Assembly (NCBI GenBank): GCA_020630435.1
Contig: JAHDBJ010000004.1
Location: 124,001-188,000, forward strand
From: Saprospiraceae bacterium
Lineage (GTDB): Bacteria > Bacteroidota > Bacteroidia > Chitinophagales > Saprospiraceae
Direction: 5' to 3'
DNA: 64,000 nucleotides
Positions 2,913 to 53,629 of this stretch are shown here, piece after piece. The first letter of the stretch is position 1. Every line of letters begins with the position of its first letter. The notes beneath the pieces were generated by a model, which ran no database searches, was not told where the DNA came from, and was given only the letters and a program-made list of their open reading frames with translations. The position numbers and the translations under genes are program-made.

Positions 2913-5270
2913 TTAACTACCACACATCAAACAGTCTGGATCATCTAGGTTACAAACCTGCCCTTCTTGAACGGTCGCTTCGGCTTTTTGTGCTTCAAAT
3001 TTGTTTTGATACTTTTGGCTCAATGTAAACTTGATTGGATCAACCGCAGCTTTACTTCTTAAATAATACATTCCTGTCTTCAAACCATTCTGCCATGCAT
3101 AAAAGTGCATTGAGGATAGTTTACTAAAATTCGGTTCTGTTACAAATAAGTTCATACTTTGGCTCTGACAGATAAATGCTCCCCTATCTGCGGCCATATC
3201 AATAATTACCTTTTGGCTTAACTCGTAGGCTGTTTTGTACAAATCTTTATATTCTTGAGGAATATTTGGAATATTTTGTATTGAACCATTGGATGCCATT
3301 AACTGCTCTTTCATATCATCATTCCAAAGTCCTAAACGATTCAAGTCTTTTAATAGATGTTTGTTAACGATGATATATTCCCCTGAAAGGGTTCTTCTAG
3401 TATAAATATTTGACGTATAAGGTTCAAAGCACTCATTGTTACCAAGTATCTGGGAAGTAGAAGCTGTTGGCATTGGTGCTAGTAATAAACTGTTTCTAAC
3501 ACCATGTTTCTTAATATCTGCTTTTAGTCCTTTCCAATCCCAACGATCGCTAGGTGTTACCCCCCACATATCGTATTGTAATTCTCCTTGACTAACTGGT
3601 GAGCCTTCATAACTTTCATAAGTCCCTTCTTTCGCTGCTATCGCACACGATTCTGTTAAGGAGGCGAAATATATGGTTTCAAAAATTTCTTTATTGAGTT
3701 TCCTTGCGTCTTGGCTATCAAAAGGATAACGCATTAATATAAACGCATCCGCCAAACCCTGTACTCCTATCCCAATAGGGCGATGACGCATATTGGAATT
3801 TCGTGCTTCTGGTATCGGGTAATAGTTTATATCAATGACTTTGTTTAAATTTCGAGTGACAACCCTCGTAATTTCATAGAGTTTTTGAAAATCAAATGCG
3901 CCATCTTCAACAAATTTTGCTAAAGAAATTGATGCCAAATTACAAACCGCTACTTCATCTGGTGAGGTGTATTCTACAATCTCTGTACATAAGTTACTGG
4001 AACGGATTGTTCCTAGATTTTTTTGGTTCGATTTTCGATTACAAGCATCTTTATACAACATATAAGGTGTGCCTGTCTCAATTTGAGATTCTAATATTTT
4101 AAACCATAATTCTTGCGCTTTTACGGTTTTCCTAGCTTTTCCTTCTTTTTCATATTGATGGTATAAGGCTTCAAATTCTCCACCATAGGTATCGTGTAGT
4201 CGTTTTGCTTCATTCGGGCAGAATAATGACCATTCTCCATCTTCTTTCACCCGCTGCATGAATAAGTCTGGTATCCACATCGCATAGAATAAATCTCTAG
4301 CTCTCAATTCTTCTTTACCATGATTCTTTTTTAATTCTAAAAATTCGAAAATATCTGCGTGCCAAGGCTCTAGATAAATCGCAAATGCGCCCTTCCGTTT
4401 TCCACCACCTTGATCGACATACCTTGCGGTATCGTTGTAAACTTTTAGCATCGGAATAATACCATTCGAGACGCCTCCTGTTCCTTTTATATAACTTCCT
4501 TTTGAGCGAATATTGTGAATACTCAAGCCTATCCCTCCTGCTGACTGAGAAATTTTAGCACAACGGGTTAAGGTTTCGAAGATTCCAGAAATACTATCTT
4601 CTGTCATCGATAGTAAGAAACAAGATGATAATTGGGGCTTCGGTGTCCCTGCATTAAATAAGGTAGGCGTAGCATGAATAAACCACTTTTCAGACATCAA
4701 GTTATACGTCTCTATGGCTGCTTCTATGTCTTCGCCATGTATCCCAACGGCTGCACGCATCAACATATGTTGGGGGCGTTCAACTACTTTCCCATCTCTT
4801 TTCAAAAGATAAGAACGTTCTAAGGTTTTAAATCCAAAATAATCAAAATTATAATCTCTATCATATATAATTGCTGAGTCTAATGTATCTGCATTTTCAG
4901 AAAAAATAGCATATATTTCCTCACTAATAAGCCCTGCTTTTTCGCCTGTTTTAGGATCGATGTATTCATACAATCCTTTCATGGTATTTGAGAAGGACTT
5001 ATCTGTATTTTTATGGAGGTTGGATACTGCGATCCTTGCTGCTAGTAAGGAATAATCTGGATGAATTGTTGCCATTGTTGCTGCTGTTTCGGCTGCTAGA
5101 TTATCCAACTCTGTTGTTGTTACGCCATCGTATAAACCTTGAATAACTTTCTTGGCAATCTCTATAGGTTCAACATATTTTCCTAGACCATAACATAACT
5201 TTTTAACTCTGGCAGTGATTTTATCAAAGCTAACGGCTTCTTTTTTACCACTTCTTTTGATTACTTGCAT
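2913..5270 (-). CDS. nrdA: Ribonucleoside-diphosphate reductase class I, alpha (large) subunit
   Basis: NrdA reduces ribonucleoside diphosphates to deoxyribonucleotides with the radical-bearing NrdB subunit. The 785 residues are full length for the family. An N-terminal ATP-cone (about residues 1-90) suggests allosteric activity control by ATP/dATP. Active-site features are visible: the redox Cys in PQLSSCF (about 217), the Asn-Cys-Glu triad in SNLCTE, the tyrosine pair in MYYLRS used for radical transfer, and the C-terminal CLMCGS cysteine pair that exchanges with thioredoxin or glutaredoxin. It is the last gene of a leftward cluster led by nrdB, but a Doc-like gene and a small unknown gene lie between the two subunits. 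Start ATG at 5270, 32 bases after the preceding stop. Confidence 0.97.
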
Positions 5271-7992: not shown

Positions 7993-8099
7993 AAATAAGT
8001 TATCCACAAAATGTGGATAACTTTTGCAGGAAAATGATTATCAAACATTTAGGGGTGTTAAATAAGTTATCCACAATGTTGAGAACTGAATGTGGAAAA
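7993..8099. promoter_or_regulatory. DnaA-box cluster upstream of the nrd operon
   Basis: Three perfect TTATCCACA boxes lie within 76 bp: 8000-8008 (+), 8012-8020 (-) and 8067-8075 (+). The first two form a perfect 12-bp inverted repeat (7997-8008 and 8012-8023) with a 3-base spacer. A 17-base direct repeat (7993-8009 and 8060-8076) contains the two + strand boxes. A weaker TGTGGAAAA at 8091-8099 may be a fourth, degenerate site. The cluster is about 330-440 bp upstream of nrdB. DnaA is known to bind and regulate the nrdAB promoter in Escherichia coli. Clustered boxes are also the mark of replication origins, which cannot be excluded here. Confidence 0.75.
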
Positions 8100-9231: not shown

Positions 9232-9840
9232 CTACTTCAGTAAAAATCCGATTCCTACACCTCCTGAGGTATATAGTTCTGAAAACCCTTCTTCTATATC
9301 ATTATCGAATAGGATATTTCCTCCGATAACAAAAAAGAAATTTAAAACTATCCTATCTTTCAAAATAAATCGTTCGCCCATCCCCCAGCCAAACTCTACA
9401 TAAGAGCCTTTAGTATCGATCTGCTCGTCAAGTCCTTCTAATTTAATATTCGCAAGACCATACTTTAAATCAATAATATTATATATCCCAACAGGAGCAA
9501 GTGATCCTCTATTGGAATTAGCATATAAATTCAGTCGTAACCCTAATGCAATATTATCCTCTTTGAATTTATAGCTTTCTCTAAAAAATACATCATAGAT
9601 ACCTGCAAAGTTTGCATTATTATATTCAAATAATAGTCCCAAAGAAGCGTTTCTAGATAATACATAATGAATACTAATCGCTTGCATATGATACAGATCT
9701 ATATTATTTGTCAACAGGGCAATTGAAGGATTGTATTCAACCCAAAGTTTTTTTCCTTGATAACCTGGTACATTTTGACTATATAAATGCTGTATAGTTA
9801 AAAAGCTTAATACTAACAGTATGATAATCTTGTTTTTCAT
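9232..9840 (-). CDS. Small predicted outer-membrane beta-barrel protein
   Basis: The 202-residue protein starts with a clear signal peptide (MKNKIIILLVLSFLTIQHL, cleavage near YSQ). It continues with alternating hydrophobic/polar strands and ends GGVGIGFLLK, which resembles the closing strand of a barrel. No enzymatic motif is visible. It starts only 4 bases after the stop of the M48 peptidase gene, so the two are almost certainly co-transcribed and may act together in the envelope. Function unknown. Confidence 0.75.
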   Translation of the reverse strand: MKNKIIILLVLSFLTIQHLYSQNVPGYQGKKLWVEYNPSIALLTNNIDLYHMQAISIHYVLSRNASLGLLFEYNNANFAGIYDVFFRESYKFKEDNIALGLRLNLYANSNRGSLAPVGIYNIIDLKYGLANIKLEGLDEQIDTKGSYVEFGWGMGERFILKDRIVLNFFFVIGGNILFDNDIEEGFSELYTSGGVGIGFLLK

Positions 9841-12693: not shown

Positions 12694-13227
12694 ATGAAAA
12701 AATTACTTTTTGGAATAAGTTCTTTATTACTTTTTTTAATTATACATCCAAATAAAATAAATGCCCAAGAAAATGTTGTCAAAATTAATGTAACAGAACT
12801 GATTTTTACGGATATTGATATTGCCTATGAAAGAGTGATTCGTGAAAATCAAAGTTTTCAAGTTGGTGCATATCTTGGGAAAGCAGTGGGTAGTCATATT
12901 GATCATAACAATATTGGCTTGTCTGCTTCTTATAGGATGTATTTCGATATACTCAAAATAGAATCCGATATACCTCATGGACTTTATGGAGGTCCTTTTA
13001 TACGATATAGGAGGTCTAAAACAGACACAGGAGATCTTTCATTTATCAATCTTGGAGGATTGGCAGGTTACCAATATTTATTAAACGACCGTTTTTCGTT
13101 TGAAGGTTTTCTCGGATATTACTATAATTTAAAATTATCAGAGAGTGGTGAATTAAATACGGATGCCGCAAAATACAATGGTAAGACTAGTTTTACTGTT
13201 GGTGCAACAGTAGGAATTGCGTTTTAA
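12694..13227 (+). CDS. Small outer-membrane beta-barrel-like protein, 177 aa
   Basis: A signal peptide (MKKLLFGISSLLLFLIIHPNKINAQ) precedes about 150 residues of alternating strands. They end in GKTSFTVGATVGIAF, with a terminal Phe as in outer-membrane barrels. Stretches such as GPFIRYRR and GGLAGYQYLLNDRFSFEGFLGYYYN are typical of DUF3575-like small barrels. Function unknown. It stands alone on the plus strand, divergent from the 12008-12418 gene, and is followed by a strong hairpin. Confidence 0.75.
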   Translation: MKKLLFGISSLLLFLIIHPNKINAQENVVKINVTELIFTDIDIAYERVIRENQSFQVGAYLGKAVGSHIDHNNIGLSASYRMYFDILKIESDIPHGLYGGPFIRYRRSKTDTGDLSFINLGGLAGYQYLLNDRFSFEGFLGYYYNLKLSESGELNTDAAKYNGKTSFTVGATVGIAF

Positions 13228-13289
13228 AATATTTTAAACCATATAAGGATTTCTCTCTCTCTAGAATTAACAAAAGATTGTTTCTCATA

Positions 13290-15013: not shown

Positions 15014-18000
15014 TTGAAACATCGTGTAATTGGCATATTGTTTTTACTATTTTGGGGATTGAATGTATCCGCTCAACAAGATTCCCTACGTCAAATACTA
15101 ACCAATTGGCGGTATAAAACGATCCCTGTTCAGACAAAAAGTTTTGTCATAGACAGTTTTACAATTATTGAATCTTCTGTTGAAATATTAAATCCTTCCA
15201 CCGCTGAAATTATTCCAAATCGATTTTATACCATACAAAATCAAAATTTAAATTGGCAAAAACCACCCTCGATAGACTCTGTTGCTATACGATATAGAGT
15301 ACTACCGTATAATCTGGAAGTTGCACAAAATCGTCTAGATACGGCCTGGATCAAACTGGATGGTAGTGGATTTAGTGGTTATAATTATGATCCTTATGAT
15401 GTCCAATCACAGGAAAAAGACGTTATCGATTTTCAGGGTTTAGATTATCAAGGGAGTTTTGAGCGAGGTATTGCTTTTGGAAATAATCAAAGTCTGGTAC
15501 TCAACTCTGCTTTCAACCTTCAAATGGCTGGTAATATTGGAGATGAAATTGAAATTCTAGCGGCTATCTCTGATCAAAATATCCCTTTACAGCCCGAAGG
15601 TAACACTCAGCAGTTACAAGAGTTTGACCGTATTTTCATGCAGCTCAAAAGACGTAAAAGTTCTCTTATCGCAGGGGACTATGAGCTTGCTCGACCGAAT
15701 AGTTATTTTATGAATTATTTTAAAAAACTACAAGGAGCAACGGCTAGTACAGAAATAAACGTTTTAAAAAATGCCAGTTGGAAAAACCAAGCCAGTTTTG
15801 CCATCGCTAGAGGAAAGTTTGCTAGAAATCTATTACCTACTCAGGAAGGAAATCAAGGTCCTTACCGATTGTTTGGAGCAAATGGTGAACGTTTTGTCAT
15901 TATTCTCTCTGGCACCGAAAAAGTCTATCTTGATGGTTTATTGTTGGTAAGAGGAGAAACCAATGATTATGTGATAGATTACAATCGGGGTGAAATCTCT
16001 TTCACCAACAATCGTCTCATTACCAAAGATTCTAGAATCATCGTAGAGTTTGAATATTCTGATCAAAACTTCCTACGCTCTTTATATGCTTACAATACCG
16101 AATTAAACCATAAAAACTGGGGCGTTCGATTTAATCTTTATTCTGAACAAGATTCTAAAAATTCCTCAATACAACAAGAACTCAGTTCGGAGGAAAAAAT
16201 TGCTTTATCTCTAGCTGGCGATGATATACAAAATGCTTTTGCTACCGGTATTGATACCCTAATTGTTGATGACACTCGTGTTCCCTATAAACTTGTAGAT
16301 ACTATATATCAAGTCAATGGTATTGTATTTCAAGACACTGTTTTGGTATATTCTACCGACCCTGATTCTGCTGTTTATACGGCTCGATTTTCATCTGTTG
16401 GTCAAGGGAATGGTAATTATATTCCTTTACGTTCTTCTGCTAACGGTCGAGTCTATGCTTGGGTTGCTCCTGATCCATTAACTGGTCAGCCTACTGGAGA
16501 ATTTGAACCTGTTGTTAAACTGGTTGCTCCCGAACAATTACAGATGTACACACTAGGAGGGCATTATAATATTGGTAAAAATGGAAAACTAGATGCCGAA
16601 GTCGCATTGAGTAATAAAGATCTCAATCGCTTTTCTGATATAGACAGCGAAGACAATCAAGGCATTGCGTTTCAAGCAGGTTACCAACATCTCCTTGATT
16701 TAAACCGACAAAAAAAGAAAGATCTGACCTTGAGTTTAAAAGGGCGCTATGAATTTAAACAAGAAGATTTTAATGCTTTAAATCCGTATCGAGTCGCAGA
16801 ATTTACTAGAGACTGGAATTTTAATAATACTGTAAAAAGAGATGAGCATCTTGCCAATGTAGGTTTTCAACTCAATAAAAATAAATGGGGAAAATTAGGA
16901 TATGAATTGGGTCTTTTTAATCGAGATTCTATCTATCAAGGTACAATGCACCGTTTTATAGCAGGATTTGACCGCAATGGTTATGTCCTTAATTTTTCAG
17001 GCAGCTTCTTAGATAGTGAAAGCGATACAGAGGCTAGTCAATTTTTTAGACCTAAAATTGATATTTATAAAACAATTGAAAAATGGAATAATGTTAAAAT
17101 TGGTGTTTATGGAGAACGAGAAAAAAATAGTCTTAAACGCTTGCAAGTAGATAGTTTAGATAATAAGAGTTTCTATTACGATCTTTACCGAGTATATATG
17201 GAAATTCCAGGCAGTCAAAAATTTAATTTTAATATCAATTACACTCAACGATATGATTTTGCACCTGTAGGAAATGATTTTATTAATAATACCATCGCCA
17301 ATGAAGTGAATCTCAATGGCGCATGGAGAGAAAAACAAAAATCTATTCTTACTTGGAATCTTACCTATCGAGATCTTCAAATCAAAGCTGCCAATCTAAC
17401 GACACAAGATCCGCAATCAACCTATTTAGGACGGGTAGACCACAGCCTTAATATTTGGAAAGGGATGGTACGTATGAATACGGGTTATGAAATAGGTTCG
17501 GGACAAGAACCCCAACGTGAATTTTCCTACGAACAGGTCAATCCTGGTCAGGGTGTTTATCAATGGTTGGATTATAATAATGATGGCATTGAACAACTCA
17601 ACGAATTTGAAATCGCAGCTTTTCAGGACTCTGCTACTTATGTAAGAGTTGCACTATTCAACAACGAATTTATTCGAACCAATAAAATTGCCTATAATCA
17701 AAGTCTCCGTATAACACCTAGAAGAATGATTGGTGAAGATGCGACAGGGTTTAAAAAATTTGTCCGTCGATTTTCTACTCAATCTACATTTAAAATCCAG
17801 CGTAAAACACAAGAATCTCAAGATATATTGCCTTGGAATCCTTTTCAACTCAATGTAGCCGATTCCTCCTTAGTTTCTGTCTCTTCAAATATTCGAAACA
17901 TTCTCTTTTTTAATAAAACAAATGTAAAATTCAATGCCCAAATCGGTGCTTATGATTCTAGAAATCGAGTGATCCTTACTACGGGCTATGAAAGCCGTCG

Positions 18001-23876: not shown

Positions 23877-24923
23877 ATGCCTTCTAAATTATTACAGCAA
23901 TTTGGTGGAAAGATAACACCACAAGATAAAGCCCGATACGAACGTTCGCCCAACTGGAAAGATGGTCAATTTCAAAATTTGGAACCCACCAGTTTAAACA
24001 CCAGTTTATTCAAACTTCCATCCATTATTTACAAACAACTGACTCAAAAAGAAGGTAAAGAACCTACACAACCGCTTCCTATCTTACCTTTTGATAAAGC
24101 GGCATTCTTAGCACCTAATGATCAAGCAACATTTATCTGGTATGGCCATTCTGCTGTCCTTCTGCGGATAGACCGTAAAACTATACTCATCGATCCTATG
24201 TTAGGATCGAACACAACGCCCATTGCCCCCATGCCTACCAAACGTTTTTCAGAAAACACCTTAGCTTTAATTGATGACTTCCCCGAGATTGATTTAATCC
24301 TCTTAACACACGACCATTATGATCATTTAGATTATGATAGTATTCAAAAATTAAAACCTAAAACTAAACAATATCTCGTCGCACTAGGTGTAAAACGACA
24401 CCTCGTAAGTTGGGGCATAGAGGAAGATATGATTACTGAAATGGATTGGTGGAACGATATTCGTTTGGATAATTTACAAATTACATTCACACCTACTCGT
24501 CATTTTTCGGGGCGAGGGGTCACGGATAGATTAAAATCGTTTTGGGGCGGTTGGGCATTCAAAACGCCAAGTGAAAATATATGGTTTAGTGGCGATGGCG
24601 GCTATGGCGAACACTTCAAAACAATCGGTCAGAAACTAGGTCCGTTCGACTTTGCCTTTATGGAATGTGGTCAATACAACGATGATTGGAAACCTATACA
24701 TATGTTCCCCGACGAGGCTGTTCAAGCGGCTCAAGATGCAAGGGCGAAAAAAGCGATGCCCGTCCATTGGGCAGGTTTTTCCTTATCTTATCAGCATACT
24801 TGGTATGAACCCGCCGAATCCTTTGTCAAAGCAGCAAAAGAACAAGAATTTACCTATACACTACCACCTTTGGGCAAACTATTTCAAATAAATGATACAT
24901 TTCTAAAAAAATGGTGGCTGTAA
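23877..24923 (+). CDS. MBL-fold metal-dependent hydrolase (NAPE-PLD/UlaG-like)
   Basis: The 348-residue protein contains the metallo-beta-lactamase-fold signature THDHYDHLD (HxHxDH). A later single His lies in FTPTRHFSG, an Asp in WFSGDGGYGEHF, and a C-terminal MPVHWAGF His completes the metal site. The N-terminal segment (FIWYGHSAVLLRIDRKTILIDPM) is typical of the NAPE-PLD/RomA-like subgroup, which hydrolyses phosphodiester or lactone bonds. It has no signal peptide, so it is cytoplasmic. The start ATG follows the receptor terminator by 13 bases and no promoter is obvious. The sensor kinase gene starts 52 bases downstream. Confidence 0.88.
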   Translation: MPSKLLQQFGGKITPQDKARYERSPNWKDGQFQNLEPTSLNTSLFKLPSIIYKQLTQKEGKEPTQPLPILPFDKAAFLAPNDQATFIWYGHSAVLLRIDRKTILIDPMLGSNTTPIAPMPTKRFSENTLALIDDFPEIDLILLTHDHYDHLDYDSIQKLKPKTKQYLVALGVKRHLVSWGIEEDMITEMDWWNDIRLDNLQITFTPTRHFSGRGVTDRLKSFWGGWAFKTPSENIWFSGDGGYGEHFKTIGQKLGPFDFAFMECGQYNDDWKPIHMFPDEAVQAAQDARAKKAMPVHWAGFSLSYQHTWYEPAESFVKAAKEQEFTYTLPPLGKLFQINDTFLKKWWL

Positions 24924-24975
24924 ATAGCTAAAAAGCCTATATTAGAGGCCGTATATGTTCTAAAGCAACTACCCC

Positions 24976-26847
24976 ATGAAGTCATATATCTCTTCTATAT
25001 TCCCGACGGGAATCGTCATTACGCTTATGATGATACTAGTTGTGTTGTGTGCTTTTGCTCAATCACCTATTTCTATCCTTCCTAATACCGATATTATTGA
25101 TGTTCCTCATAAATATTTGTTACAGGATACCTCTATGGAACTAGGGCTAGAAGATGTTCTTAAACATCCTGATTTTAAAAAGCTAACAGGCAGGCTTTCC
25201 GTTCCTGACGGAGCAACTTATTGGCTTAACTTTTCGATTAAGAATGAAACAGATACCGATTTCAGCCGAATTCTACATTTTGATTCGCAGGATTTTTTTG
25301 AAATACGTCTATATCAACTTTCGCAAGAAAATAAAATTATCCAAGCGGATACAACGGGTACATTTTTCCCTTTTGATTATCGCCCCATCAAAAGCATGGG
25401 CTTTAAATTTCCTATCAACCTAAGAGCGAATGAAACTAGAAACATCTATTTATATTTAGATAGAAGATTTCAGCCGATTCGAGCAGACTTTAGGCTTTTG
25501 ACTCCTCGTAAAAGTTTAGAGAATGAATATAAAAATAGGGTTGAATCTGGTATACCTTTAGGTATTAGCTTTGTCTATCTGTTTTTTTCTATTGTACTTT
25601 TATTATTTTTTAGAAAAAAAATTCAGTTCTTCTTTTTTATATATGTTTTAGGAAATGTTGTTTATATCTTTTATATACAGGGCTACGGATTTTCCCATTT
25701 GTGGTCAAACTATCCTTTCAATTATTTTGAAGATTGCTCACCTTATGTGGCTTCTACTTGTATTTTACTAGGGTTTACAGGCATTTTTCAAAACTTTTTC
25801 CCTATCAAAAATTACTTTCCAAAGGTCTATACTTATTTCAATATCATTATTATCATTTCTACTTTCTTAATCATTGGTTTTATTTTCTGGTATCCATTCT
25901 GTCAAGTTTTGCCTAGTATTTATAAAGTACTTTTCATGGTGGAAGGGATACTTTTCATTCTTGTGTTAGGGACTTCTTTAATACTAGGAACAATCATTTA
26001 TCGAAAAACGCAAAATATAGAATATTTTTGGTTCTTAACGGTATTCATCTTTGTTATGGTGCTTGCCCTGATATTACTTAGTACAGAACTAAAACTTTTT
26101 GCGCCTATTCCTTTTATTTCGACTCAGCTCCCCTCTATCGCCATCCTCTATGAAACCATTGTACTGTCGGTATTGCTAATTCGTAAAATTTATACCGATA
26201 AAATCGAACAATATCAAGCCATTTTAAAGGAACGAGAATTGGTGGCGATGGACTTACACAGCGGCGTAATATCGGAGATTAGCGGGGTGAAAAGTCTGAT
26301 TGAATTCAGCTTAAAAAAAGATAAACCCAACATTTTTAAAAAAATAAATACGACACTAGACGAAGCGATTGAAGATGTACGAGATATGATATGGCTCTCT
26401 AGGAACGAATACAAATTGCTCAATAATCTAAACGCTAAAATCCGCCAAAAAATCAGCACCCGCTTTGAACATACGCCTACTCAAATACACTTAGACATTC
26501 CTGAAACGGCTAGCCCTGTAGTCCTCCCCTACGCCGTGAGGCGGCATTTGTATTTTTTCATAAAAGAAGTCGTCAATAATGCTGAAAAATATGCTCAAGC
26601 ACAAAACTTCTGGGCAAAGCTACATTATCAAGATAATCAAATCATCATAGCAATAAAAGACGATGGAAAAGGCTTTAATATGAATGTCGAGCGCAAACAA
26701 ATTGAAAGCGGTGGACATGGACTTCTAGAACTAAAAAATAGAGCAACACACATGAATGCTCAATATGAAATCCAAAGTAGTCTAGGCAATGGCACACAGA
26801 TTAAATTGACGATTCCGATTATTGAAAAAGTGGAGGTTATTGTTTAA
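24976..26847 (+). CDS. Sensor histidine kinase, 7TMR-DISM type with HisKA_3
   Basis: Domain order: an N-terminal hydrophobic segment (about 15-28), an extracellular 7TMR-DISMED2-like domain (about 40-165), seven membrane helices (about 185-400), then a short coil and HisKA_3. The phosphoacceptor His lies in ERELVAMDLHSGVISEI (DLHSG where most have DLHDG). The HATPase has N-box VVNNAEKYAQ, G1 DDGKGFN and G2 GGHGLLELKNRA. It should phosphorylate a NarL/LuxR-type response regulator. The natural partner is the gene at 30614-31291, 3.8 kb away on the same strand and separated from it by a restriction-modification cassette. The stop is only 6 bases from the convergent endonuclease stop. Confidence 0.9.
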   Translation: MKSYISSIFPTGIVITLMMILVVLCAFAQSPISILPNTDIIDVPHKYLLQDTSMELGLEDVLKHPDFKKLTGRLSVPDGATYWLNFSIKNETDTDFSRILHFDSQDFFEIRLYQLSQENKIIQADTTGTFFPFDYRPIKSMGFKFPINLRANETRNIYLYLDRRFQPIRADFRLLTPRKSLENEYKNRVESGIPLGISFVYLFFSIVLLLFFRKKIQFFFFIYVLGNVVYIFYIQGYGFSHLWSNYPFNYFEDCSPYVASTCILLGFTGIFQNFFPIKNYFPKVYTYFNIIIIISTFLIIGFIFWYPFCQVLPSIYKVLFMVEGILFILVLGTSLILGTIIYRKTQNIEYFWFLTVFIFVMVLALILLSTELKLFAPIPFISTQLPSIAILYETIVLSVLLIRKIYTDKIEQYQAILKERELVAMDLHSGVISEISGVKSLIEFSLKKDKPNIFKKINTTLDEAIEDVRDMIWLSRNEYKLLNNLNAKIRQKISTRFEHTPTQIHLDIPETASPVVLPYAVRRHLYFFIKEVVNNAEKYAQAQNFWAKLHYQDNQIIIAIKDDGKGFNMNVERKQIESGGHGLLELKNRATHMNAQYEIQSSLGNGTQIKLTIPIIEKVEVIV

Positions 26848-26853
26848 ACTTTT

Positions 26854-28011
26854 TTAGAATGAGAATTCTTTTGTTAAAATTTCAGTAATTCTTGCCCAAT
26901 TAAATTCTATTCCACGACCAACTTTAAAATACCTACTTCCTCTCGTTTTTAAAAGCCCAAGTTTATTCCATAACTTTAGTTCGTCTCTAATATAGCTCTC
27001 TTTATTCCCAGTTGTAGTTCGACCTTCTTTTCTTTGTCCAATAGAATTATTTTCATCTAAATAAGTTTCAAAATCTTTTCTAAATTGAGTACTATTAGAG
27101 AGACTTATCGCTTTAGCCTTAGTTTTATAATTTTCTAAATCCTGTATAAGTGTTAGGTGTTTACCTTCAATCAAAACAAGTTTTGTAAGATAATCCATAT
27201 ATAAGCTGCTTTCTATTCCAAAAATCTTACCAATAGATATTAATTTGTAACCCTTTGCTGTTAATCTCCCTTCTGAAGGTTCTATTAATCCTAATTGAAA
27301 AAGCGGAATTTTATAGTTCTGTTTCTCACTTTTATAGTTAGTATTATTGTCAGTTTTTATCCTACCAATTCCTTCCCAAGTTCTAGTTTTACGACTAATC
27401 ATTAATTGCCAAAACTCTGGCCAAGCATAATGAGTATATATATCTCCAAGTTGATTAGCAAATTTATCCAGTAAGTTTAATAAAGTAAAAATTTCATAAT
27501 GACTTATATCTCTCCACCAACACCAATACGTTTGATTTATATGCTCAGAAACTATTTCTCCTGTTCTTTCATGTTCAATTGGTTTAAATAACTGAATTGA
27601 GTTTAAAGGATCTGATTCTAAAGTCTTTTCATCATAACCAATTACCGCAATATAATGTCTTGAAAAAACGTCAAGTGATAATATATTTGTTAAATGTTGG
27701 GCTATATAGTAACCTTCAACAATAGTTGGTAAAATTATACCCGAATAATGATGCTTTTCCAGATAGGATAAAGTTTGCCCTAAACCCGTTAAATATTCCC
27801 GTTTAGCATGATTTGGTGGCTTAAATTCAAAGGCTATACTTTGGTCTAAATCATAATCAAAACATACATAATCAGGTCTAGGCCAACTAAAATCTCCTGC
27901 CTTACTTAAATTATCAGAAAAAACTTGTCCCCAATTATCAAAACGAGCAACAATCTTTGAAATAATTGCTCTTCCAGCTTTATCTGCTAATAAGTCGTGA
28001 TTTGCACCCAT
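26854..28011 (-). CDS. Predicted type II restriction endonuclease (PD-(D/E)XK)
   Basis: Near the N-terminus the sequence reads RPDYVCFDYDLDQSIAFEFK, placing PD at 46-47 and E-x-K at 62-64, the PD-(D/E)XK nuclease arrangement. I do not recognise the rest of the 385 residues, and the C-terminal half looks helical and may carry the DNA-recognition part. The context is the main support: the gene overlaps the upstream m5C methyltransferase by 25 bases and is last in an R-M operon with a controller protein. The cut site cannot be read from the sequence. With two methyltransferases, an asymmetric recognition site is likely. Confidence 0.8.
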   Translation of the reverse strand: MGANHDLLADKAGRAIISKIVARFDNWGQVFSDNLSKAGDFSWPRPDYVCFDYDLDQSIAFEFKPPNHAKREYLTGLGQTLSYLEKHHYSGIILPTIVEGYYIAQHLTNILSLDVFSRHYIAVIGYDEKTLESDPLNSIQLFKPIEHERTGEIVSEHINQTYWCWWRDISHYEIFTLLNLLDKFANQLGDIYTHYAWPEFWQLMISRKTRTWEGIGRIKTDNNTNYKSEKQNYKIPLFQLGLIEPSEGRLTAKGYKLISIGKIFGIESSLYMDYLTKLVLIEGKHLTLIQDLENYKTKAKAISLSNSTQFRKDFETYLDENNSIGQRKEGRTTTGNKESYIRDELKLWNKLGLLKTRGSRYFKVGRGIEFNWARITEILTKEFSF

Positions 28012-29030
28012 TGGTCTATAATTATTTGTTTTAAGTGTTCCGCAAACACATTAGATAATTTTACAGGAACTGCATTGCCTACCTGAATACATTGCTCTTG
28101 TCTTGTTCCTTCAAATATTACATCATCAGGAAAAGTCTGAATTCTAGCAGCTTCTCGAACAGTCAAACTTCTATCCTCTGTAGGATGTAATGGAAAAGCA
28201 TTGTGACCTGGAACCATAGTAGTAGCTGGTTTATCTCTATGAAGTCTTTTATATACGTGACTAAAATTTTTTAGCTTATTATTTTTAAAGTCACTTCTCG
28301 AACCTTTTAAAAGACGCTCAGGTATATCTGGGTGAATCCCCCCTCCTTCAAAGATATAACTAATTCGTTCTTTTACAATTGGATTGTGTTTCATAGGGAT
28401 ATGATTAGGTAAATTATTCTCTTGACCAACCAAATCCATTATATGATTTCTTAGTATTTCAGGTTTTTCTTTAGTAAACTCCTTTGGATACTCTAACTCT
28501 TGACCATTTTTTGACCCCATAAAAAACACCCTATATCTTTTTTGTGGAACACCATAATCTGCTGCACAAATTATTTTACATTTAGTGTTTTTATATCCTA
28601 TTTCCTTGAATTTTTCAAGTAAAATATCTCTAAAATATCCTTTCTTTGAAGAAACTAAGCCTCTTACATTCTCCATTATAAAATAATCGGGTTTAAGTAC
28701 ATTTACAACCCGTAGAAATTCGAGTATTAGGTTATTTCTTTCATCATCTGGATTTCTATTTCCTATAGTAGAAAATCCTTGACAAGGCGGTCCTCCCACA
28801 ACTACATTGACTTTTTCGTCATTTGTATTTTTGATAAATTCTTCGTCAGTAATTTCTCTAATATCTTTAGGTAACAACAGAATATTTGGATAATTTGTCT
28901 TATGTGTTGCTATCGCTGGCTTCCAATTCTCTACTGAAAATAATGGATGATAGCCTGCATCCATGAAACCTCTTAAAAATCCTCCTGCACCAGAGAACAA
29001 ATCGACAAATGTTAGCTTCTCACTATTCAT
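27987..29030 (-). CDS. DNA (cytosine-5-)-methyltransferase, second of a tandem pair
   Basis: All main m5C methyltransferase motifs are present: motif I DLFSGAGGF (10-18) for S-adenosylmethionine, motif IV GGPPCQGFS with catalytic Cys83, motif VI ENVRG (120-124), motif VIII QKRYRVFF, and motifs IX-X TVREAARIQTFPD and QVGNAVP. It protects host DNA from the adjacent endonuclease. It overlaps the upstream methyltransferase by 8 bases and the endonuclease by 25. It is clearly paralogous to its neighbour, and the shared blocks near the C-terminus are similar at the DNA level too. The target-recognition regions (about 190-260) differ, so the two may modify different strands of one site. Confidence 0.95.
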   Translation of the reverse strand: MNSEKLTFVDLFSGAGGFLRGFMDAGYHPLFSVENWKPAIATHKTNYPNILLLPKDIREITDEEFIKNTNDEKVNVVVGGPPCQGFSTIGNRNPDDERNNLILEFLRVVNVLKPDYFIMENVRGLVSSKKGYFRDILLEKFKEIGYKNTKCKIICAADYGVPQKRYRVFFMGSKNGQELEYPKEFTKEKPEILRNHIMDLVGQENNLPNHIPMKHNPIVKERISYIFEGGGIHPDIPERLLKGSRSDFKNNKLKNFSHVYKRLHRDKPATTMVPGHNAFPLHPTEDRSLTVREAARIQTFPDDVIFEGTRQEQCIQVGNAVPVKLSNVFAEHLKQIIIDQWVQITTY

Positions 29031-30060
29031 ATTTATCTAAAATTTTTAATACATGGTTCGCCCACTTTTCTGCCATTACTGGTGGCACAGCATTGCCAAC
29101 TTGAATACACTGTGCCTGTCTATTTCCTGTAAAAATATAATTATCAGGAAAGGTTTGAATTCTAGCCGCTTCTCGAACAGTTAAGCTCCTATTTTCTGTT
29201 GGATGTATAGGAAAAGCATTATGACCAGGTACCATTGTTAACGATGGTTTTTCTCGATGTAATCTTTTAAATGTATTACCAAAATTTTTTCGGTATAATT
29301 CAGGAGGTAATTTATCTTCAGGCATTCTCTCTCCTTCTGGAATTAATTTATATCTAGCAATATTTTTTTCTCCATGTTTTAAAGGTATATGGTTTGGAAT
29401 TTCATTCTCTTTTCCTATCAAATCATTTATTGCCTGACCAACAGTCTTGTATTTATGTCCATTTATACCATCCTCAAAATGAGTTGGTTCTGGAAAAGGA
29501 TTTTTATCTAATTCAGTCCTATGACCATAGACAAATGTTCTATACCTAATTTGAGGAACACCATAATCCGCTGCATTTAAAATTTTATACGATATTCTAT
29601 AACCAGAAATAGAATTGAATTCTTCCATAACATCTTCGAAAAAATCACCTTTTCGATATGTAGTAAGCCCACGTACATTTTCCATGATGAAATATTTTGG
29701 TTCTAATACTCTAACATGATTTATAAAGTGACCAATTAAATTATTTCTAATATCATATTTTTCTCGTTTTTGTGAGTTGGAAGAAGCTCTATTTCCTATC
29801 GTAGAAAATCCTTGACAAGGTGGTCCTCCGATTAATACATCAACATCCTTAACCCCTCTATTGAACCAAAATTCTTGCTCATTTATTTGTGATAGGTCAA
29901 TTTTTTCAAAAGGTAATTCGGGGTGATTTTTTCTATGAAAAGATTCACAGTCCTTGTTAAAATCTGTCGCAAGTAACAATTCAAACCTTCCAGTACTCAA
30001 AAAACCACTATGAAATCCACCAATTCCAGAAAATACATCAATTAAAGTGTATTTTTTCAT
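29023..30060 (-). CDS. DNA (cytosine-5-)-methyltransferase, first of a tandem pair
   Basis: Motif I reads IDVFSGIGGFHSGF, motif IV GGPPCQGFS with catalytic Cys82, motif VI ENVRG (127-131), motif VIII QIRYRTFVYG, and motifs IX-X TVREAARIQTFPD and QVGNAVPP. The 345 residues are a full-length enzyme. The start ATG overlaps the stop of the controller gene by one base (TAATG), indicating translational coupling. The target-recognition region, about 190-260, is longer in polar residues than in the neighbour (EDGINGHKYKTVGQAINDLI). It acts with the second methyltransferase and the endonuclease as one R-M system. Confidence 0.95.
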   Translation of the reverse strand: MKKYTLIDVFSGIGGFHSGFLSTGRFELLLATDFNKDCESFHRKNHPELPFEKIDLSQINEQEFWFNRGVKDVDVLIGGPPCQGFSTIGNRASSNSQKREKYDIRNNLIGHFINHVRVLEPKYFIMENVRGLTTYRKGDFFEDVMEEFNSISGYRISYKILNAADYGVPQIRYRTFVYGHRTELDKNPFPEPTHFEDGINGHKYKTVGQAINDLIGKENEIPNHIPLKHGEKNIARYKLIPEGERMPEDKLPPELYRKNFGNTFKRLHREKPSLTMVPGHNAFPIHPTENRSLTVREAARIQTFPDNYIFTGNRQAQCIQVGNAVPPVMAEKWANHVLKILDKYE

Positions 30061-30383
30061 TAAAATTCTAATTTTCCTTGTTTAGCATTTTTGTTTCTTA
30101 TATAACTAGCAGCTTTCTCTGCAACTGAAAAAATTGTATCTGAACAGTGGTATTTATAAGCTTCTCTTGCAAACTTATCAGCAAAAAATAAGTCAATTAC
30201 TTTTTGCTTATCTACACCAAAAAGCTCAGAAAGCAACTCAAGTTTATTTTTGCTAAAAGTTTGGCTACCATTTTCAATTCTACTAACTGCACTAGAATTC
30301 ACTCCAATTTTAGCACCTAAATCCGTTTGAGTCCACTCTCTTTTTTCTCGTTCAACTTTTATAAAATCACCAAAACTTGCCAT
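30060..30383 (-). CDS. XRE-family controller protein of the R-M operon
   Basis: The 107 residues carry an N-terminal helix-turn-helix of the Cro/C1 type (EWTQTDLGAKIGVNSSAVSRIENG, about 17-40) and a short C-terminal helical part. Size, position as the first gene, and overlap with the first methyltransferase are those of R-M control (C) proteins, which delay endonuclease expression until the host DNA is methylated. Two inverted repeats lie at the presumed promoter immediately upstream, as expected for autoregulation. An alternative is a general XRE repressor with no C-protein kinetics. Confidence 0.85.
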   Translation of the reverse strand: MASFGDFIKVEREKREWTQTDLGAKIGVNSSAVSRIENGSQTFSKNKLELLSELFGVDKQKVIDLFFADKFAREAYKYHCSDTIFSVAEKAASYIRNKNAKQGKLEF

Positions 30384-30397
30384 TTTCAGGTATTTAC

Positions 30398-30456
30398 ATC
30401 AAAAGATTTGATAGTTATTTAGCAAATGTAAAAACATTTTGTGATTTTATCATCAA
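30398..30456 (-). promoter_or_regulatory. Promoter/operator region of the R-M operon
   Basis: On the minus strand TACATTTG (30430-30423) fits the TAnnTTTG element, with TTG at 30456-30454 as a distant -33 candidate (23-base spacing). AAATGT-AAAA-ACATTT (30424-30439) is an inverted repeat that overlaps the -7 element. ATCAAA-AGA-TTTGAT (30398-30412) is a second perfect repeat near the expected start of transcription. The pair resembles a double operator for the XRE controller encoded 15 bases downstream. Confidence 0.5.
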
Positions 30457-30613
30457 GTTCTAATAATTTTATTTTTAATTTTTCAAAGAAAATGATGAAC
30501 TTTCTAGCTCAAAAGTATGGAGAATTGAAAAAACTGTGGCAAATTATACTCCCTACCATAAAAAAGGTATATCATTTATATTGTAGAGTCCGTATCTTTA
30601 TAGAAAAAACACC

Positions 30614-31291
30614 ATGCCCATAAACGTAATGATCTTTGAAGATAATGCCGATTATCGAAAGCCCCTTGTTCAGTTAATTGAGGCGCACCCTGAATTGAAA
30701 CTTGCGGGAGCCTATGCTGCCTGTTGGGGCGTCCTACAAAAAATAGAACAAAATCGCCCTGACATTATTCTCATGGACATCGAGTTGCCTGGTGATACGC
30801 CGAATAAAGATGCAGGCATAGATGCTACCCGAAAGGTCTATGAAACCCATAAAAACGAGATAGATGTCATCATGCTTACCGCTCTCAATGACGATCAAAA
30901 GATTTTTGAATCCATCTGTGCTGGAGCGAATGGTTATCTAGTGAAGGGAATTAGCAATGAAGATATTGTCCGAACGATAAAAACGACTTACGATGGTGGC
31001 TCAAATGCATCGCCAGAAGTGGCTCGAAGAATTTTAGAGTTTCTACGAAATCCTGTCAATAAGCGCAAAGCCGCGCTCCTTAGTCCTAGAGAATTTGACG
31101 TCTTAAATGCTATTCGAATGGGTTTAAGTGTCAAAATGATTGCCCAAGAGCTCAATTTAGCTACAGGAACCGTCCAGACACATACCAAAAATATTTATAA
31201 AAAATTAAAAGTCAACAATAAGGTTGAAGCGGTAAATACCGTCTTTTTTAATCCTCAAAAAATAATGAGCCGATTTAAAAACTTATTTTAG
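30614..31291 (+). CDS. NarL/FixJ-family response regulator
   Basis: The receiver domain (1-125) has acidic residues in IFEDN, the phosphoacceptor Asp55 in ILMDIELPG, a Thr in MLTALND and a Lys in GYLVKGIS. The C-terminal LuxR-type HTH (about 160-215) reads LSPREFDVLNAIRMGLSVKMIAQELNL and VQTHTKNIYKKL. It matches the HisKA_3 kinase encoded at 24976-26847 and is probably its partner, but the R-M cassette now separates them. TATCTTTA at 30593-30600 is a near match to a -7 element. The 3' end overlaps the convergent HAD gene by 9 bases. Confidence 0.93.
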   Translation: MPINVMIFEDNADYRKPLVQLIEAHPELKLAGAYAACWGVLQKIEQNRPDIILMDIELPGDTPNKDAGIDATRKVYETHKNEIDVIMLTALNDDQKIFESICAGANGYLVKGISNEDIVRTIKTTYDGGSNASPEVARRILEFLRNPVNKRKAALLSPREFDVLNAIRMGLSVKMIAQELNLATGTVQTHTKNIYKKLKVNNKVEAVNTVFFNPQKIMSRFKNLF

Positions 31292-31954
31292 TTCTAGTAC
31301 CTTTTCTGCTTTTTCAAGGTCAAAATCGTTCCAATTTTCGATGTATATTTTAATATTTTCCTTTTCGAAATCGGCGTAGTTTTTTGAGCCAATGCCGATA
31401 AAGTGAAGGTTTAAATTTCGAGCAGTTTTCAAATCCCAGATGCCATCGCCTACCGCAATGATATTTTCAAAAGACTTTTTGTTGTAGTATAATTTTGCTT
31501 TTTCAATTGCATGAGTTACAATCTGTTCTCGCTCAAACAATCTATTCGAACCAAGTAATAGGTTTTCTGTATGCCAAATGTTCGCATGTTGAAGTTTGAT
31601 TAATGCGGGTTGCAATAAAGAGCCTGTTGCAAATGCCATCGCATAATCTTCTCTTGTGTTCAAATAGTTTATGATTTTCCCAGCCCCTTCAATTTCAACA
31701 GTCTCATCAAGTTCAAGTATATTTTTAGTCATTTCCTTTTCAAACCCTTCAATAAACTCAAATTCGAAAGGGATTTTTAGATTATGCTCGTAATTTTCTT
31801 TTAAAATATAACTATCGGTGTGATGTGTATACGATTTCCAGTTTTGGTTGATATTGGTTATCCCAAATGTTTTCATGGCATCGACATACGCACGTTGGTG
31901 TTGGTATTCGCTTCGTGTTAAGGTATCGTCTATGTCAAATACGATTAAATTCAT
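31283..31954 (-). CDS. HAD-superfamily phosphatase
   Basis: Motif I is FDIDDTLT at the N-terminus, motif II FATGS, the motif III Lys lies in the KKSFENI region, and motif IV is GDGIWD. A helical cap sits between motifs I and II, as in phosphoglycolate-phosphatase/beta-phosphoglucomutase-like enzymes. The substrate is unknown. I chose the ATG at 31954 (MNLIVFDIDD) because it starts directly before motif I. The upstream extension to 31996 adds a weak leader inside the neighbouring gene. With this start it overlaps the pyrophosphatase-like gene by 20 bases, so translation is probably coupled. Confidence 0.88.
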   Translation of the reverse strand: MNLIVFDIDDTLTRSEYQHQRAYVDAMKTFGITNINQNWKSYTHHTDSYILKENYEHNLKIPFEFEFIEGFEKEMTKNILELDETVEIEGAGKIINYLNTREDYAMAFATGSLLQPALIKLQHANIWHTENLLLGSNRLFEREQIVTHAIEKAKLYYNKKSFENIIAVGDGIWDLKTARNLNLHFIGIGSKNYADFEKENIKIYIENWNDFDLEKAEKVLELK

Positions 31955-52540: not shown

Positions 52541-53629
52541 ATGGCTGTATTACATTTTTATAATAATAAATTCCACAAGAACGAGGAAGAAGATAATGGT
52601 TTAATCGCCAAAAATCTAGAAAGTGAAATCGTTGAATATTCTGAAATTGGTCTAGGCAAACCGTTATGTGTGCAAATTGTCAATATCTATATTGGGGATG
52701 CTCCTAGTGGTTTTATGAGTAGTAAAAAAGATTTATTGGTGGTTTCGGGTATAAAAACACCTGCAACGTTTGATGCTTCACAAAAAGCGATTAATCTACT
52801 CGCCAAAAATGTCAAAAATCGAACATATCTAGAGCCTGATGATGCCTTTAGTAAAGGGACTTCTATCGTATATTATACCCCTGCACTTGAAGCGAGTCAA
52901 ATGACCTTTTCTTTTGAGTTAGTAACGGAGTCGTTTAACGATAAACTAGCGACACAAATCGAAGGTCTATTTAATCGTGCTGCACAGATGCCTTTATTTG
53001 TGACGTCTGCAACAACCTTAGTGGCAGGAACGGGCATTTTAAATATTGTCAAAAGATTAGGGAAAGCTATCTTTGAAAGCAAGCCATTTATGAACGACTC
53101 TATCACTGCCCGTATTGATATTGGGGGTTTCACACAGTTTAAGGCGGGGCAAAAACTTATTTGTGAGAATGGGAAAGAGTCTTTTTTTCAAAATAATTGT
53201 GAAATCAAGTCTGTTGTTACCTTCAATGGAAATCAGAATTATTATTTAGTAGATAGAAATACAGGACAACGATATAATGGAGATATACCCTATATTATCC
53301 TTAATGTTGATGGTCGTGAACGAAGAGAATTGGCTTCTTTCCAACCGAAGATGGCTTCAGCAGCTATGATTTCTCGTTTTTATGGTTCTGACACACAGGA
53401 TATAGGGTTCAAGATGTTGGAAACAGGGATGCAATTGCACAGCGATTTGACCTATATCAAAAAGATTAAAGGGCTGAAAAAAGAACTGAAAGGTCTAGGA
53501 GAAGAAGATGTTGAAAAAATTGACAAATTAAATGTTCTTATCGACGCTTATAAAAAGAATATACAGAGCGAAGATTTAAATCAAATGCTGAAATTACAAG
53601 AAGGTGCTGAAATTCTAGATGAAGATTAG
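52541..53629 (+). CDS. Unknown protein, 362 aa, paired with amidase gene
   Basis: No family is recognised. The N-terminal half (about 1-130) is beta-rich, with NGLIAKNLESEIVEYSEIGLGKPLCVQIVNIYIGDAPSGF and VVSGIKTPATFDASQKAINLLAKN. A hydrophobic FVTSATTLVAGTGILNIVKRLG at about 165-186 could insert in a membrane. The C-terminal 80 residues are helical and charged. No signal peptide is present. It starts 34 bases after the amidase gene and is followed by an intrinsic terminator, so the two form a bicistronic unit. A role as immunity, carrier or secreted partner protein of the amidase is possible but only positional. Confidence 0.7.
   Translation: MAVLHFYNNKFHKNEEEDNGLIAKNLESEIVEYSEIGLGKPLCVQIVNIYIGDAPSGFMSSKKDLLVVSGIKTPATFDASQKAINLLAKNVKNRTYLEPDDAFSKGTSIVYYTPALEASQMTFSFELVTESFNDKLATQIEGLFNRAAQMPLFVTSATTLVAGTGILNIVKRLGKAIFESKPFMNDSITARIDIGGFTQFKAGQKLICENGKESFFQNNCEIKSVVTFNGNQNYYLVDRNTGQRYNGDIPYIILNVDGRERRELASFQPKMASAAMISRFYGSDTQDIGFKMLETGMQLHSDLTYIKKIKGLKKELKGLGEEDVEKIDKLNVLIDAYKKNIQSEDLNQMLKLQEGAEILDED

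What the first reader, a model, noticed from the sequence alone, without database searches (positions are those of the whole stretch)
24976..31291. R-M cassette splits a two-component pair
A HisKA_3 sensor kinase (24976-26847) and a NarL/FixJ response regulator (30614-31291) lie on the same strand with a four-gene minus-strand R-M operon exactly between them, beginning 6 bases after the kinase stop. The regulator is now cut off from kinase transcription. This pins an insertion site precisely and raises the question of how the regulator is now transcribed.
Basis: partly seen in the sequence, partly recalled or inferred. Interest (0 to 1): 0.6.

Follow-up and report, generated by a model that had tools for sequence, protein, structure and literature searches.

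The report
Restriction cassette inserted between signalling genes
A four-gene DNA-cutting defence cassette, nearly the same as ones in two other bacterial genera, sits exactly between a sensor gene and its likely partner regulator; this is a neat, well-bounded but ordinary case of a mobile defence unit landing between neighbouring genes.

Summary
The layout is real: sensor kinase 24976-26847 (+), four-gene minus-strand R-M operon 26854-30383, NarL-type regulator 30614-31291 (+). The R-M unit is foreign: copies lie in Winogradskyella aurantia (nuclease 90% identical) and Euzebyella saccharophila (84%), against 60% and 71% for two housekeeping-type proteins compared with Winogradskyella. Both DNA alignments end at the same window bases, 26853 and 30473: 1-6 nt after the kinase stop, 140 nt before the regulator. 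The nuclease is a relative of the type IIS enzyme PaqCI; two m5C methyltransferases and a small HTH gene complete it. That an adjacent pair was split is likely but not shown: no uninterrupted orthologous locus was found. Both proteins fall in one kinase/regulator clade, where 30 of 38 other loci are kinase-then-regulator; but 7 of 29 near regulators have no kinase recognised within 700 nt. No duplication or terminal repeat stands out at the junctions, and no promoter for the regulator was recognised. In the two flavobacteria the cassette lies beside integron-like attC hairpins (at least 49 in W. aurantia), not found at the window copy. New member of a known kind.

The parts
24976..26847 (+). 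7TMR-DISM sensor histidine kinase (623 aa), complete
26848..26853 (.). 6-nt gap (ACTTTT) that holds the left junction; no terminator-like hairpin listed between 26546 and 28942 on either strand
26853..30473 (-). R-M cassette as bounded by the DNA alignments with Winogradskyella aurantia (80.7%) and Euzebyella saccharophila (77.3%); both main alignments end at these same two bases
   Evidence: ends shown
26854..28011 (-). PaqCI-like restriction endonuclease (385 aa), P46-D47...E62-x-K64
27987..29030 (-). m5C DNA methyltransferase 2 (46% identical to methyltransferase 1)
29023..30060 (-). m5C DNA methyltransferase 1
30060..30383 (-). small HTH (XRE) protein, probable controller of the R-M operon
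   Evidence: role inferred
30398..30412 (.). inverted repeat ATCAAA-N3-TTTGAT before the HTH gene, 5 of 6 pairs kept in each of the two relatives (by eye); candidate operator
   Evidence: function inferred
30423..30430 (-). TACATTTG, fits the Bacteroidota -7 element TAnnTTTG (consensus recalled), with CTTG 23 nt upstream; TATATTTG in both relatives; likely R-M promoter
   Evidence: function inferred
30474..30613 (+). 140 nt outside the cassette, upstream of the regulator; must hold or adjoin its present promoter
   Evidence: no TTTG/TAnnTTTG match on the + strand
30614..31291 (+). NarL/FixJ-type response regulator (225 aa), complete

Best explanation
A compact R-M cassette (HTH controller, two m5C methyltransferases, PaqCI-like nuclease; about 3.6 kb) was acquired from another lineage (donor not shown) and inserted between the stop codon of a 7TMR-DISM histidine kinase and the regulator that most likely was its adjacent partner. 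The kinase and the nuclease now converge tail to tail across 6 nt, while the R-M operon and the regulator diverge from a 230-nt region. Both signalling genes stayed intact. The regulator must now start from a promoter of its own, most simply in the 140 non-cassette bases upstream of it. Shown: gene content, foreign origin, the two ends. Inferred: previous adjacency, promoter, that the pair still signals, and an insertion route by end joining or short-homology recombination.
For: Cassette DNA aligns with L087 and L090 from window 26853 to 30473 in both and not beyond (ends). Nuclease 90% and 84% identical to those flavobacteria, against 60% for a GcvT-like and 71% for a YebC-like protein (names by eye) between Winogradskyella and the window genome. 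Nuclease homologue in 1 of 119 relatives and 1 of 395 class genomes, the window genome itself each time. Kinase and regulator each complete. Kinase-domain and regulator trees each hold the window row in a clade of identical membership: 32 of 49 rows (compared by hand) and 39 of 57 rows (supports 0.99 and 0.998); in the latter 30 of 38 other loci are kinase->regulator, 6 regulator->kinase, 1 convergent, 1 divergent. The two best-scoring kinase matches, L057 and L058, are followed by such a regulator, 88 and 51 nt between the matched domains.
Against: No uninterrupted orthologous locus found: the two best-scoring kinase matches are 22% and 25% identical, the two best regulators 40% and 43%. The only other genome of the genus held is 64% complete, has no kinase match and a regulator match of only 1.6e-7. 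The trees do not single these two out as partners: the window kinase's distance profile fits 26 of 56 other regulators better than its own neighbour. Of 29 near regulators 7 have no kinase recognised within 700 nt; of 49 kinase loci 10 have no regulator and 1 gave no kinase hit, some only because the stretch held is short. Loci were chosen by likeness to the window proteins, so the clade test is not independent of the choice. Loss of intervening genes during insertion cannot be excluded.
Confidence: 0.68

Rival explanations
1. The cassette landed beside the kinase with loss of other DNA, or the regulator arrived separately; kinase and regulator were never an adjacent operon and need not be partners.
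For: No orthologous intact locus; 7 of 29 near regulators have no kinase recognised within 700 nt and 6 precede their kinase; partner choice is not resolved inside the clade.
Against: Both proteins fall in the same co-inherited clade. Same strand and commonest order; without the cassette about 145 nt would remain between kinase stop and regulator ATG. In fetched kinase->regulator pairs the gap between matched domains is 35-254 nt (14 regulator-fetched) and 6-592 nt (25 kinase-fetched); these are domain gaps, so the comparison is rough.
Confidence: 0.25
2. The cassette entered as an integron(-like) gene cassette by attC recombination at a secondary site, as its relatives in Winogradskyella and Euzebyella suggest, and later lost its attC.
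For: In L090 and L087 the same four genes lie beside attC-like hairpins; the model finds 49 such sites in W. aurantia and 7 in Euzebyella.
Against: The window copy ends at the nuclease stop without any hairpin. The model's only window matches up to E 1 are weak and far away (7997-8090, 19.0 bits, E 0.011; 53257-53318, 12.2 bits), and it finds none in the window genome at E <= 0.01, with 150 of 1526 first-look candidates scored.
Confidence: 0.1
3. The R-M operon is ancestral at this place and the arrangement is vertical inheritance in this lineage.
For: Low but unremarkable G+C: 31.4%, with 15% of 302 same-size stretches of the window as low or lower.
Against: Nuclease absent from 118 of 119 relatives; cassette present at 77-81% DNA identity in two flavobacteria.
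Confidence: 0.02

Closest known systems
PaqCI (type IIS restriction endonuclease, PDB 8em1/8epx)
   Same: Only PDB sequence-profile match up to E 1 (6.6e-13) and the best structure matches (Foldseek E 2.9e-11); N-terminal PD-(D/E)xK domain as described for PaqCI (passages of PMC10201449)
   Different: 385 aa against 510; 16-17% identity in the structure alignments; target sequence unknown; model confidence low (mean pLDDT 59.3)
Methyltransferase + nuclease units on four Acinetobacter plasmids (pBspH11 and three others)
   Same: Nuclease homologue, 23-24% identical over 99% of the query; on pBspH11, the one looked at, it follows a cytosine methyltransferase gene
   Different: One 2.2-kb methyltransferase gene, long enough for two domains (not tested); two hypothetical genes upstream of it (not tested for HTH)
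R-M cassettes of Winogradskyella aurantia and Euzebyella saccharophila
   Same: Same four genes in the same order, 77-81% DNA identity
   Different: There beside attC-like hairpins and, in Winogradskyella, behind a tyrosine recombinase; at the window copy no such parts
Mobile type II R-M units inserted in genomes and operons
   Same: R-M genes are reported on integrons and in operons (Introduction of PMC3031569), and to insert with short or long target duplications (passages of PMC3874152)
   Different: No target duplication or terminal inverted repeat stands out here

Membership tests
PaqCI-like type IIS R-M system | N-terminal PD-(D/E)xK endonuclease domain | tested here: met
   P46, D47, E62, K64 invariant in 5 homologues; profile positions 42-170 match PaqCI 49-186
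PaqCI-like type IIS R-M system | C-terminal target recognition domain like PaqCI | tested here: inconclusive
   second stretch 214-377 matches PaqCI 329-504 with 20.1 bits, i-Evalue 0.0023
PaqCI-like type IIS R-M system | asymmetric target cut at a fixed distance | not testable with these tools
   needs biochemistry; two different m5C methyltransferases (46% identical) would suit an asymmetric site (inference)
Controller (C-protein) R-M systems | small HTH gene at the head of the operon with its own operator | tested here: inconclusive
   HTH_3 gene first in the operon; conserved inverted repeat before it (by eye); PADLOC best HTH_VI 1.4e-09, Control_protein 6.9e-05
HisKA_3 / NarL two-component pair | kinase with HisKA_3 and HATPase_c | tested here: inconclusive
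   HATPase_c and His428 present; HisKA_3 not reported by Pfam at 0.01; NarQ/NarX/LiaS-type matches below cut-off
HisKA_3 / NarL two-component pair | receiver plus GerE output domain | tested here: met
HisKA_3 / NarL two-component pair | specific phosphotransfer between the two | not testable with these tools
   clade-level agreement only
Integron gene cassette | attC at the cassette's 3' end | tested here: not met
   window copy: no R1 match near it, none in its genome at E <= 0.01. In L090 a site follows the cassette at 9250-9393; in L087 only the site before it is matched
Transposon-like R-M unit | terminal inverted repeats and target duplication | tested here: not met
   longest shared junction word 6 nt, reached or passed by 595 of 2000 random pairs; longest terminal inverted word 7 nt, out of register

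The most novel reading that the evidence does not exclude
The same compact R-M unit exists in two transport forms: as a multi-gene cassette of a flavobacterial integron-like array, and as a naked unit that joined chromosomal DNA within a few bases of a gene's stop codon. Here it also rewires a signalling pair: convergent transcription with no terminator between kinase and nuclease makes each an antisense of the other, and the HTH controller's promoter region now borders the regulator, so phage defence and signal transduction become transcriptionally coupled.
Probability: 0.12. Interest if true: 0.55.

Novelty: new member of a known kind. Interest (0 to 1): 0.33.

Why it matters
It is a clean example of a defence cassette inserted between two probably co-functioning genes without breaking either, with both ends fixed by two relatives. 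It offers a natural test of whether a two-component pair survives the loss of co-transcription, and of how R-M cassettes leave integron-like arrays. It does not change the picture of R-M mobility.

Tried and rejected
Close relative with the empty site: sought with the kinase in 60, 398 and 395 genomes (overlapping sets), the regulator in 119, and with the whole 8.5-kb stretch as DNA in the one congener, where only a 60-nt match inside methyltransferase 2 (window 28113-28172) came up; not found.

Target duplication and terminal repeats: longest shared junction word 6 nt (TTTTTA), reached or passed by 595 of 2000 random pairs; rejected. Regulator promoter: no TTTG/TAnnTTTG match (up to 1 mismatch in each box, spacing 17-23) on the + strand of the 140 nt; 0.41 expected in shuffles. 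The same scan found an exact match on the minus strand at 30543-30510, outside the cassette, so such matches are weak evidence. Sigma-70-type hits in 24700-31400 number 28 against 28.4 by chance; none was used.

R-M copies in viral contigs and phages: no confirmed match. Rfam on three loci: nothing reached a gathering score. Nuclease structure: mean pLDDT 59.3, so the Foldseek match to PaqCI is used only beside the sequence match. Paper searches: (R-M, 'operon insertion', two-component) found none. No claim of absence from print is made.

The first count of pairs (48 loci) used flanks of up to 1.5 kb and missed regulators standing before long kinases. Wider stretches were then fetched for 15 of the 29 regulator loci and 5 of the 49 kinase loci, giving the counts; five partnerless kinase loci (L012, L022, L075, L079, L080) kept the short flanks. 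In two partnerless regulator loci a kinase lies farther off (L102, L107), and in L099 a long unrecognised ORF is next to the regulator. The regulator tree was the quick one, as the careful one did not finish; its agreement with the kinase tree was compared by hand.
Full report
What is there. The window is G000:C18:124001-188000 of a 5.12-Mb genome. Between a 623-aa kinase (24976-26847, +) and a 225-aa regulator (30614-31291, +) lie four overlapping minus-strand ORFs, 26854-30383. Pfam gives 7TMR-DISMED2, 7TMR-DISM_7TM and HATPase_c for the kinase, Response_reg and GerE for the regulator, DNA_methylase for two ORFs, HTH_3 for the small one, nothing for the 385-aa one. Kinase His428 and boxes, and receiver Asp55, Thr89, Lys111, are present (motif words recalled), so neither gene looks broken.

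The nuclease. Five homologues share P46-D47...E62-x-K64. A profile of them matches PaqCI, a type IIS enzyme, as the only PDB hit up to E 1 (6.6e-13), in two stretches, one in each half (the second is weak). A low-confidence model (mean pLDDT 59.3) also finds PaqCI first. PaqCI has an N-terminal PD-(D/E)xK domain, recognises CACCTGC and cuts 4 and 8 bases downstream (passages of PMC10201449). The target of the window enzyme is unknown. The two methyltransferases are 46% identical; two different m5C enzymes would fit an asymmetric site (inference).

Foreign origin and exact ends. A scan of contigs of 84,980 species gave 23 pattern matches and 4 relatives: Euzebyella saccharophila (84%), Winogradskyella aurantia (90%), and two Bacteroidales MAGs (39% and 41%); the first two are Flavobacteriaceae. 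None was confirmed in viral contigs or found in phages; four Acinetobacter plasmids match at 23-24%. Among whole genomes: 1 of 119 relatives and 1 of 395 of the class, each time the window genome itself, and 3 of 397 of the family of W. aurantia, one of them only 30-34% identical. Yardsticks between W. aurantia and the window genome are 60% (GcvT-like) and 71% (YebC-like; names by eye), below the nuclease's 90%. The main DNA alignments to both flavobacteria run from 26853 to 30473 and stop there, at 80.7% and 77.3% identity (ends). So the left end lies 1-6 nt after the kinase stop and the right end 90 nt before the HTH gene, leaving 140 nt to the regulator. These are limits of similarity, not a sequenced empty site.

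Was a pair split? No orthologous locus without the cassette was found, so I tested whether the two proteins are of partner kinds. From loci fetched by likeness to the kinase (49) or the regulator (29), neighbours within 700 nt were tallied. Regulator loci: 14 kinase->regulator, 6 regulator->kinase, 1 divergent, 1 convergent, 7 without a recognised kinase. Kinase loci: 25 kinase->regulator, 8 convergent, 5 regulator->kinase, 10 without a recognised regulator, 1 without a kinase hit. Some places occur in both sets. With duplicates removed, 56 pairs plus the window gave two trees in which the window rows sit in a clade of the same 39 rows (supports 0.99 and 0.998); of the 38 others 30 are kinase->regulator. 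An earlier set of 48 pairs showed the same kind of agreement (32 rows). The two best-scoring kinase matches (L057, L058) are each followed by such a regulator. Against this: inside the clade the partner is not resolved (26 of 56 other regulators fit the window kinase's profile better), loci were chosen by similarity, and regulators without a recognised kinase neighbour exist. I put former adjacency at about 0.7.

Consequences. The kinase and the nuclease now converge across 6 nt with no terminator-like hairpin between them, so read-through would make antisense RNA on both sides (inference). The R-M promoter is probably the TACATTTG at 30430-30423, kept as TATATTTG in both relatives, with an inverted repeat 30398-30412 as candidate operator (by eye). 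No promoter for the regulator could be recognised, so how it is transcribed stays open.

How it got in. No target duplication or terminal repeats stand out. In Winogradskyella and Euzebyella the same genes lie beside attC-like hairpins: eight sites share a stem of 14 pairs, 8 of them with changes on both sides, 0 of 500 shuffles reaching this (the sites were picked from repeats and by eye). A model of them finds 49 sites in the W. aurantia genome and 7 in Euzebyella, and none in the window genome at E <= 0.01; 150 first-look candidates were scored in each. The eight sites it was built from match by construction. Its best match in the window is weak and far from the cassette (7997-8090, E 0.011). 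In W. aurantia a tyrosine recombinase stands just upstream, passing NF040815 (222.4 against 220) but not the integron-integrase model TIGR02249 (200.7 against 265). So the cassette seems to travel in integron-like arrays elsewhere, but arrived or persists here without them.

Comparison with the known. R-M genes on integrons and in operons are in print (Introduction of PMC3031569; its abstract, reports movement linked to insertion sequences or to crossing-over at 1-3 bp of identity), as are R-M insertions with short or long target duplications (passages of PMC3874152). Integrons in Bacteroidota are also in print (passages of PMC8618304). This is therefore a new member of a known kind.

Noticed in passing
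L090:4142-16788 (Winogradskyella aurantia): Integron-like array: tyrosine recombinase, then the R-M cassette, then 7 attC-like hairpins starting 0.8-2.3 kb apart; 49 such sites found in the genome, several near the first bases of contigs.
   Followed up: partly
L087:215-348 and about 4200-4240 (Euzebyella): attC-like site before the R-M cassette; the one after it is not matched by the model and looks shortened (the shortening read by eye).
   Followed up: partly
L090 and L087, both ends of the R-M cassette: Besides attC-like sites, a palindromic repeat with AAGCACATT...AAAGAGCTTTC stands at both ends of the cassette in Winogradskyella, with similar stretches in Euzebyella; not seen in the window copy (by eye).
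   Followed up: no
L090:11609-11908, 12947-13246, 15706-16005: Three copies of a 300-nt repeat (96-97% identical to the first) inside the array.
   Followed up: no
G000:C34:40656-41780 (L093, L116): The window genome has a homologue of that recombinase (37% identical); the stretch held around it (L116, which runs to the contig end) has no attC-like match up to E 1.
   Followed up: partly
window 27987-30060: The two methyltransferase genes share stretches of 73-89% DNA identity about 1.0 kb apart (families D1-D3 and D5), as an old tandem duplication or gene conversion would leave.
   Followed up: no
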